From Entamoeba histolytica HM-1:IMSS (lineage: Eukaryota > Evosea > Mastigamoebida > Endamoebidae): 35,581 nt of DNA. The stretch is from positions 1 to 35,581 of the forward strand of contig NW_001915030.1 of assembly GCF_000208925.1 (NCBI RefSeq), given 5' to 3'. Numbering within the stretch: position 1 is the first letter of the stretch; each line of letters begins with the position of its first letter. The translations under genes and the position numbers were made by a program. The notes beneath the pieces were generated by a model that worked only from the letters and a program-made list of their open reading frames with translations, did no database searches and was not told the DNA's origin. Positions 30,575 through 32,109 of this stretch are shown in pieces.

Positions 30575-32109
30575 GATTTATTTATTTAACTATGGAAAAG
30601 CACATACCAAGCTTCAAAAACACATTGTTGACCTCCTGGTTTCGAGGCTAGTACATTGAATTGCAGCAGACGTTTTTGAAGTTACAATAATATCATCAAT
30701 AGTCTCATTATTTAGTCCAAGCACATGTTTAAACTTTTGATACTCATCTATCTGAAGGTGTAAATGATATATAGAAAGATTTTAAACTCATTTGTCAAAT
30801 CCTTGAAGTTCAAATCCAACAATCAAGTACTGAGCAGTAATTCTAGAAGCAGATTGATCTAGAAACATGGGACTATCCATTAACATGCATCTAGTCTAGT
30901 TTGAAGACGTTTGTAATGTATTTGCCACTAGAAAATTCATATCCAATAAATTCAACAATCTTTTCATTGTTGTGTATCTTGTATTTGTCTGGAGAAAGAA
31001 CAAAATGAGCATTCATCATTGGAAGGAATTCCAACCCTTTAAACGACTTGATATTCAAAAGCCAATCAGAGATAATAAGAGCATCATCTCCTAAAATCAT
31101 ATAATCTCTCACAGATACGTCAGGCATATCTAAGCAGGATAATAACACTACCGAGTTTGTTATGGATCCAATAATTTATGTAACTGGTGATCCAGAAGAT
31201 ATTCCCTTCCTTTTAATATGTATTGTAGAATCAAGAAACATCAATAGTGGATTGGTGAAATATTTAACGGTTCTTTGGCAATCTTTCAAAAAGCCTTCCC
31301 CATTGAAAGATTTGTTTGCATCCTATCACTCTACGCTTGTAAAGATATCTTTAAAGATATGTTTGGTCAAGTATCCAGCCACGTTATGGTCAAAGTGTGA
31401 CAAATCAGTTGATAACCCGGATAATCTCTTTCTAGAAAAGAGAGCTGTCTTGAACAAAGTATTCTCACTAAACATGATGTGAGTAGATCTAACTGCCTAT
31501 TCAATAATTTAAGTTAATGATAACTGGGGATAGTGCTTTCTGGAATAACTTGTTCTAATGGATAAACCCAAATAGTATAAACCTTGACGTTATCAAGAAT
31601 GTGCAACTTTGATTGGGTTGCTAGCTTACGTGGTACATATTGAATTGGTGCAAGATATTAAACATCATAGAACTGTGCAAAGGCAATGATGTTTTTACGG
31701 ATTTTTCCTTTTGTGTGTCATTTGTGTAAAGCATCAGCTGAAGTGGACTTGTCTAGATGTTGAGAAATCATTTCCCACCCCACATCTTGATGTGTTTTGG
31801 TAATATTTCATTACAAATCATCATGGTTTGTTGTTTTATCTTGAGAACTAGGGATGTATTACAAGCTATGTCTTCTTTGAAGTAGTCATTGAGTGATGAT
31901 AAAACATCTTCTAAAGTAATATCATAGGTCATTGGTTTTTCAGAGTAGTTTTGTTTAAATATATTCCTCAATTTTTCAGAATACAAATTTAAAATCTCAG
32001 CATTGATAGACTCAGACACAAACTCTTGAATAATGTACTTGTAAGGCTGGAATTTAAACATTTTATTGTTTTTGTTTTGTTGACATTTTGAAATAAAAAG
32101 GAAAAACAA
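30575..32109 (-). pseudogene. Endogenous partitivirus-like RNA-dependent RNA polymerase, decayed
   Basis: Relic of a dsRNA-virus polymerase, read on the minus strand and broken. Intact pieces: N-terminal frame 32109-31768; a frame around 31660-31500 with VYTIWVYPLEQVIPE, like the fingers motif KVRxVWxYPxExxxxE; then one frame from about 31455 to 30891 with motif A (DLSHFD, Asp codons at 31406-31404 and 31391-31389), motif B (SGSPVT, Ser-Gly-Ser at 31196-31188, then GSITNS) and motif C (ILGDDALI, GDD at 31091-31083). Stops interrupt this frame: TGA and TAG at 31328-31323, and TAA at 31178-31176. A C-terminal piece lies in another frame at about 30885-30790. The SGSxxT motif B and the motif order fit partitiviruses or picobirnaviruses. 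G+C is higher than in neighbours (two lines counted: 21 and 22 of 60, against 13). It is not functional. Confidence 0.82.

What the first reader, a model, noticed from the sequence alone, without database searches (positions are those of the whole stretch)
30575..32109. Fossil partitivirus-like RdRp in an amoeba chromosome
Motifs A (D..FD), B (SGS..T) and C (GDD) of a viral RNA-dependent RNA polymerase lie in one minus-strand frame at correct spacing (70 codons from A to SGS, 35 from SGS to GDD), with an upstream fingers motif and C-terminal remnants in other frames. Three in-frame stops and at least two frame changes show it has decayed. It implies past infection of an Entamoeba lineage by a partiti- or picobirna-like dsRNA virus and insertion into the nuclear genome. 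I am not certain whether this copy has been described.
Basis: partly seen in the sequence, partly recalled or inferred. Interest (0 to 1): 0.88.

Follow-up and report, generated by a model that had tools for sequence, protein, structure and literature searches.

The report
Virus fossil fused to amoeba SINE
A chromosome of an intestinal amoeba carries the decayed polymerase gene of an unknown RNA virus, apparently pasted in together with one of the amoeba's own mobile elements; it hints at what once infected this parasite and how the viral gene got in.

Summary
On the minus strand of an Entamoeba contig (E. histolytica or very close; [quoted passage not shown] Pfam RdRP_1 matches at E 4.3e-11, its only match in this genome. 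The gene is dead: at least six in-frame stops and three frame changes along my path of open pieces. Host genes flank it.

A full-length SINE-like repeat (40 further copies listed) follows directly on the same strand. The polymerase-plus-SINE block is flanked by an exact 15-bp repeat found 8 times in 16.95 Mb, two of the eight being these two ends. The T-rich target that Entamoeba SINEs prefer lies before the viral end, not before the SINE. Best reading: one insertion, in which a LINE enzyme copied a SINE RNA, jumped to viral RNA and inserted both.

"Partitivirus-like" is plausible but unproven: no relative was found and no tree was made; two of three picobirnavirus motif strings are not met. 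Six paper searches listed no earlier report.

The parts
32095..32109 (-). 5' copy of the 15-bp direct repeat (proposed target site duplication), 30 nt past the OST1 stop
   Evidence: exact match TTGTTTTTCCTTTTT; 8 occurrences in the genome, both strands, 2 of them in this block
30566..32094 (-). virus-derived stretch, 1,529 bases, holding the broken RdRp gene; both ends are inferred from the repeat and from the SINE start
   Evidence: open pieces in order; PF00680 E 4.3e-11; GC 0.327 against 0.213 in the far flank
31771..32060 (-). N-terminal open piece, frame 2
   Evidence: no family match that names a polymerase
31517..31657 (-). fingers-like open piece with KVYTIWVYP, frame 1
   Evidence: no Pfam match alone
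31329..31496 (-). open piece with motif A (DLSHFD, 31406-31389), frame 0
   Evidence: no Pfam match alone
31179..31322 (-). open piece ending in motif B (SGSPVT, 31196-31179), frame 0
   Evidence: RdRP_1 E 0.0088 alone, below cut-off
30894..31175 (-). 94-residue open piece with motif C (GDD, 31091-31083), frame 0
   Evidence: no RdRp match alone in Pfam; structure prediction of no use, mean pLDDT 39.6
30617..30895 (-). C-terminal open pieces 30895-30791 and 30781-30617, frame 1
   Evidence: no Pfam match
29971..30565 (-). SINE-like repeat, 595 bases, full length, same strand as the RdRp
   Evidence: 40 further matches listed, 71-79% identical, some partial; start and end set by alignment with 29 other copies and their own target repeats
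29956..29970 (-). 3' copy of the 15-bp direct repeat, directly after the SINE
32139..33047 (-). host gene on the viral 5' side: OST1 / ribophorin I, last exon
   Evidence: PF04597 E 6.8e-20; 289/302 to E. nuttalli, 266/305 to E. dispar
28227..28682 (-). host gene on the other side: Ras/Rab-type GTPase
   Evidence: PF00071 E 1.3e-27

Best explanation
A non-retroviral endogenous viral element: the RdRp gene of an RNA virus with an RdRP_1-type polymerase, now a pseudogene in the nuclear genome of Entamoeba histolytica or a close relative. It entered in one event together with a SINE. An Entamoeba LINE enzyme cut a T-rich site just past OST1, began copying a SINE RNA from its 3' end, ran off the SINE 5' end, jumped to the 3' end of a viral RNA, copied that and closed the insertion, leaving a 15-bp target duplication around the whole block. 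It then decayed. Shown: motifs and profile match, decay, host flanks, full-length SINE in the same orientation, the shared 15-bp repeat. Inferred: the LINE as enzyme, the template jump, the order of copying, absence of function.
For: PF00680 E 4.3e-11; motif arrangement in 0 of 300 shuffles; host genes on both sides; the full-length SINE starts right where the viral stretch ends, same strand. The 15-mer occurs 8 times in 16.95 Mb, 2 of the 8 at the two ends of the block in the same orientation. In 29 other SINE copies the longest match of the 3' flank to upstream sequence is at most 12 bp, against 15 here. Shuffle P 0.0033 for the outer repeat. T content of the 50 nt upstream is 0.76 at the viral end, above all 28 usable controls (0.42-0.66), but 0.42, level with the lowest control, before the SINE; Entamoeba SINEs prefer T-rich sites (PMC2996970, passage). 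The genome holds at least 150 reverse-transcriptase matches, and Entamoeba LINEs are related to the R2 group (PMC2657916, passage).
Against: The SINE's own flanks share 9 bp (TCCTTTTTT) ending 2 nt before its start, shuffle P 0.028, so a separate SINE insertion is not excluded; 10 of 29 other copies show 9 bp or more in that test. Both shuffle tests were set up after the matches had been seen. The 3' flank also has two 14-bp matches on the other strand of the window, at unrelated places. The control copies had less upstream sequence (334-1,693 against 2,060 bases); 7 of the 29 do not begin cleanly at the SINE start, and 5 of those share one upstream sequence. At 5-16% divergence an unmutated 15-bp pair is somewhat lucky. 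No empty site could be read.
Confidence: 0.72

Rival explanations
1. Two events: a viral cDNA was inserted first, by a LINE enzyme or by break repair, and the SINE landed at its 3' end later; the 15-bp repeat is then chance between T-rich stretches.
For: A 9-bp repeat at the SINE's own ends, shuffle P 0.028. Such SINEs often carry target repeats of this length (PMC2996970, passage). T-rich flanks make chance matches easier.
Against: The 15-mer is rare (8 in the genome, 2 of them here); 0 of 29 control copies reach 13 bp upstream; the SINE's own upstream flank is not T-rich (0.42).
Confidence: 0.22
2. The locus is not dead but is used by the host, for example as a source of small RNAs against related viruses.
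For: None found here; plausible from endogenous viral elements of other hosts and from RNA interference in Entamoeba (recalled).
Against: At least six stops and three frame changes exclude a full-length protein; no transcript data were at hand.
Confidence: 0.05
3. Not viral: a retroelement reverse transcriptase or a cellular polymerase gene, or a chance match.
For: PF00680 rang in 1 of 14 control genomes of cellular organisms; 6 of 7 pieces alone match no polymerase family.
Against: No piece matches reverse transcriptase, although the genome is full of it; the order and spacing of the three motifs occur in 0 of 300 shuffles; cellular RdRPs of RNA interference have a different active site (recalled).
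Confidence: 0.03
4. Assembly error or contamination with a live virus.
For: Coordinates rest on one assembly; no reads were available.
Against: The stretch is decayed and has host genes on both sides. A protein 100% identical over 83% of the GDD piece is listed with a longest contig of 17,590 bases, whereas this contig has 35,581; whether that is an independent assembly is not stated.
Confidence: 0.02

Closest known systems
Endogenous partitivirus and totivirus sequences in eukaryote genomes (Liu et al. 2010, J Virol; title seen in the reference list of PMC3198968; paper not held; content recalled)
   Same: RdRp gene of an RNA virus inside a nuclear genome, decayed
   Different: I could not check whether Entamoeba is in that paper; the virus family here is not settled; a SINE is joined to the viral part
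Endogenous Rep genes of circular ssDNA viruses in Entamoeba (PMC3198968, passages; 14 listed for E. histolytica HM-1:IMSS)
   Same: viral fossils in the same host genus
   Different: DNA virus, replication initiator; not an RNA virus polymerase
Picobirnaviridae segment 2 / RdRp (PMC7855169, passages)
   Same: GDD; one RdRp gene per segment
   Different: DLSHFD instead of DFXKFD, SGSPVT instead of SGSGGT; GUAAA and ACUGC ends not seen at the inferred ends
Partitiviridae, for example Cryspovirus of the protozoan Cryptosporidium (PMC7522927, passage)
   Same: RdRP_1-type polymerase with GDD; a gene of about 1.5 kb (family traits partly recalled)
   Different: no relative found, no tree; capsid segment unknown
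Nodavirus-like element captured by a retrotransposon in the nematode Bursaphelenchus xylophilus (PMC5177903, search listing and start of abstract only)
   Same: RNA virus gene joined to a retroelement
   Different: other virus group, other host, other element; details not read

Membership tests
Non-retroviral endogenous RNA viral element | sequence homologous to an RNA virus gene | tested here: met
   PF00680 E 4.3e-11 over the cut-off; motifs A, B, C at proper spacing
Non-retroviral endogenous RNA viral element | lies in host chromosome between host genes | tested here: met
   OST1 on one side, Ras-type GTPase on the other; further host genes in the window; no long-read check
Insertion by a LINE enzyme (target-primed reverse transcription) | target site duplication around the insert | tested here: met
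   15-bp exact repeat around virus plus SINE; the rival 9-bp repeat around the SINE alone is weaker
Insertion by a LINE enzyme (target-primed reverse transcription) | empty site in a relative | not testable with these tools
   no DNA of other Entamoeba species is held; only proteins of OST1 were found
Entamoeba SINE | short dispersed repeat with target duplications in T-rich intergenic sites | tested here: met
   595 bases, 40 further matches listed; other copies with own repeats of 13 and 14 bp; which SINE family was not settled, no reference sequence at hand
Picobirnaviridae | RdRp motifs DFXKFD, SGSGGT, GDD | tested here: not met
   GDD met, the other two not
Partitiviridae | RdRp groups with partitiviruses in a tree | not tested
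   no relatives could be fetched
Partitiviridae | second segment with a capsid gene | not tested
   no search for a capsid gene was made
Totivirus-type RdRp (RdRP_4) | match to PF02123 | tested here: inconclusive
   no match at E <= 10, but nothing rang in the 14 control genomes either

The most novel reading that the evidence does not exclude
A virus-SINE chimera made by end-to-end template jumping of an R2-related LINE enzyme, recording an RNA virus lineage that infected Entamoeba and of which no living member is in the collections searched here. The same route may have left other captured RNAs directly upstream of SINEs in Entamoeba genomes.
Probability: 0.6. Interest if true: 0.72.

Novelty: new variant of a known kind. 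Interest (0 to 1): 0.6.

Why it matters
Virus-like particles were reported in Entamoeba in 1960 and transmissible virus-like agents in 1972 (PMC10925606 and PMC3820453, passages); in the passages that I read no RNA virus genome of Entamoeba is named. A polymerase fossil gives a sequence-based lead to one lineage. The joined SINE and the outer target repeat make it a clean, testable case of how a retroelement without long terminal repeats can capture a viral RNA.

Tried and rejected
Relatives of the polymerase: IMG/VR scan with the GDD piece, 17 pattern matches, 0 confirmed. About 5.8 billion proteins: 1 hit among 2 candidates, 100% identical over 83% of the piece, so the same sequence; only proteins of 0.55-1.75 times the piece's length could be found. 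tblastn of phage records at E 10: none. PDB with three pieces: only weak matches to unrelated proteins, best E 0.16, 0.029 and 0.01. PHROGs and NCBIfam with six pieces: nothing that names a polymerase. The motif-B piece matched a cobinamide-phosphate guanylyltransferase in PDB and NCBIfam (E 0.029 and 0.0042, far below the NCBIfam cut-off); taken as chance. Structure of the GDD piece alone: mean pLDDT 39.6, too poor for a fold search, none was made. Other copies of the viral part in the genome: none by DNA or by the GDD piece at E 10. Picobirnavirus membership: not met by motifs. Dating by stop count is rough; it assumes neutral decay and my path.

Earlier reports: six searches listed no RNA-virus fossil in Entamoeba; 26 and 63 list only 20 of 46 and 25 of 90 papers, and the library lacks most subscription journals. 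PMC12548735, a 2025 survey of endogenous RdRps, has no 'Entamoeba' in its main text; supplements were not seen. Four other searches concerned SINEs and motifs. Fifteen papers were seen, all as passages only.

Full report
What is there. The window is contig C222 of a genome held as 16.95 Mb in 392 contigs. Its triosephosphate isomerase is 250/250 identical to PDB 1M6J, and its cysteine synthase 289/290 to PDB 4IL5; the tool prints no organism for these chains, and that they come from E. histolytica is recalled. The last exon of OST1 is 289/302 identical to a protein named for E. nuttalli, 266/305 to E. dispar, and 33% to E. invadens. So the organism is E. histolytica or very close; I do not claim a strain.

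The polymerase. On the minus strand, from about 32094 to 30566, the three frames hold open pieces that follow one another as a polymerase would: N-terminal piece, fingers-like piece, motif A, motif B, motif C, C-terminal pieces. Pfam RdRP_1 matches at 44.6 bits, E 4.3e-11, over its cut-off and nowhere else in the genome. The same search rang in 1 of 14 control genomes, so the profile is not perfectly specific, but no piece matches reverse transcriptase. The motif arrangement occurs in 0 of 300 shuffles and in none of 42 other loci of the genome. Searched one by one, 6 of 7 pieces match no polymerase family and the motif-B piece matches weakly (E 0.0088, below the cut-off). The case therefore rests on the three palm motifs taken together. 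The structure prediction of the GDD piece was too poor to use (mean pLDDT 39.6).

Decay. At least six in-frame stops and three frame changes lie along my path through the pieces. With 3.6-5.1% of random substitutions in these codons making a stop, five to eight stops suggest roughly 0.07-0.16 substitutions per site since selection ended. The SINE beside it differs from its family at 19 of 363 conserved columns, rank 13 of 23 copies; those columns are chosen for being conserved, so this is a lower bound. The two values are of one order. They do not contradict a joint origin and do not prove it.

A repeat of 595 bases follows directly, 30565 to 29971, on the same strand. One search lists 40 further matches, 71-79% identical, some partial; only 40 of 243 candidates were scored, so there are probably more. 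Copies that carry their own target repeats, such as L011 (13 bp) and L037 (14 bp), show where the element begins and ends, and this copy begins and ends there too. It has the length, the T-rich setting and the duplications of Entamoeba SINEs (PMC2657916 and PMC2996970, passages). Which SINE family it is I could not settle.

The target repeat. The sequence right after the SINE's 3' end has its longest exact match in the window, 15 bp, at 32109-32095, just before the viral stretch and on the same strand; the next best are two 14-bp matches on the other strand, at unrelated places. The 15-mer occurs 8 times in the genome, two of them being the ends of this block in the same orientation; the pattern read backwards occurs 4 times. 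In 29 other SINE copies the longest match of the 3' flank to upstream sequence is at most 12 bp, over 334-1,693 bases against 2,060 here. Of these 29 copies, 7 do not begin cleanly at the SINE start, and 5 of those share one upstream sequence. A dinucleotide shuffle gives P 0.0033 for the outer repeat and 0.028 for the 9-bp match at the SINE's own flanks; both regions were chosen after the matches were seen. The upstream 50 nt are T-rich at the viral end (0.76) and not at the SINE end (0.42); 28 controls range from 0.42 to 0.66, one control of mostly N being left out.

Mechanism. These facts fit one insertion by a LINE enzyme: copying starts on a SINE RNA, runs off its 5' end, jumps to the 3' end of a viral RNA and ends near that RNA's 5' end. 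That explains the order virus-SINE, the shared strand, the full-length SINE, the outer repeat, and the T-rich tract at the far end. Entamoeba LINEs are related to the R2 group (PMC2657916, passage), and at least 150 reverse-transcriptase matches are in this genome. That R2 enzymes jump from the end of one template to the next, and that recombinant SINEs arise in E. histolytica, I recall; one search found no held paper with all four terms. Against it stand the 9-bp match at the SINE's own ends and the lack of any mutation in the outer repeat. I put one event at about three in four, given that the stretch is viral.

Which virus. RdRP_1 covers picorna-like and partiti-like polymerases (recalled). 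Two of three picobirnavirus motif strings are not met (PMC7855169, passage). The label partitivirus-like is a fair guess from motif style and gene size, but no relative was found in viral contigs, phage records, proteins or solved structures, and no tree was made.

Species range. The protein collection holds OST1 of E. nuttalli, E. dispar and E. invadens but only an identical copy of the GDD piece. This hints at a lineage-limited insertion, yet annotated protein sets seldom include pieces of pseudogenes, so it is weak.

Verdict. The family label is open.

Noticed in passing
window 33050-33300, minus strand: The OST1 reading frame lacks its first part in the ORF list; comparison with the E. dispar protein suggests a short intron there rather than a broken gene (my reading).
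   Followed up: partly
control genome: Pfam RdRP_1 also scores over its cut-off in Methanosarcina acetivorans, an archaeon, which is unexpected.
   Followed up: no
P0001: A 78-residue protein identical to part of the GDD piece is listed with a longest contig of 17,590 bases, not 35,581; it may come from another assembly of the same locus.
   Followed up: no
L016, L018, L021, L027, L030: Five SINE copies share the same sequence upstream of the element, so they look like copies of a larger duplicated unit.
   Followed up: no
window 18396-19958, plus strand: A 520-residue open frame rich in asparagine and isoleucine with no Pfam match at E 1e-5.
   Followed up: no
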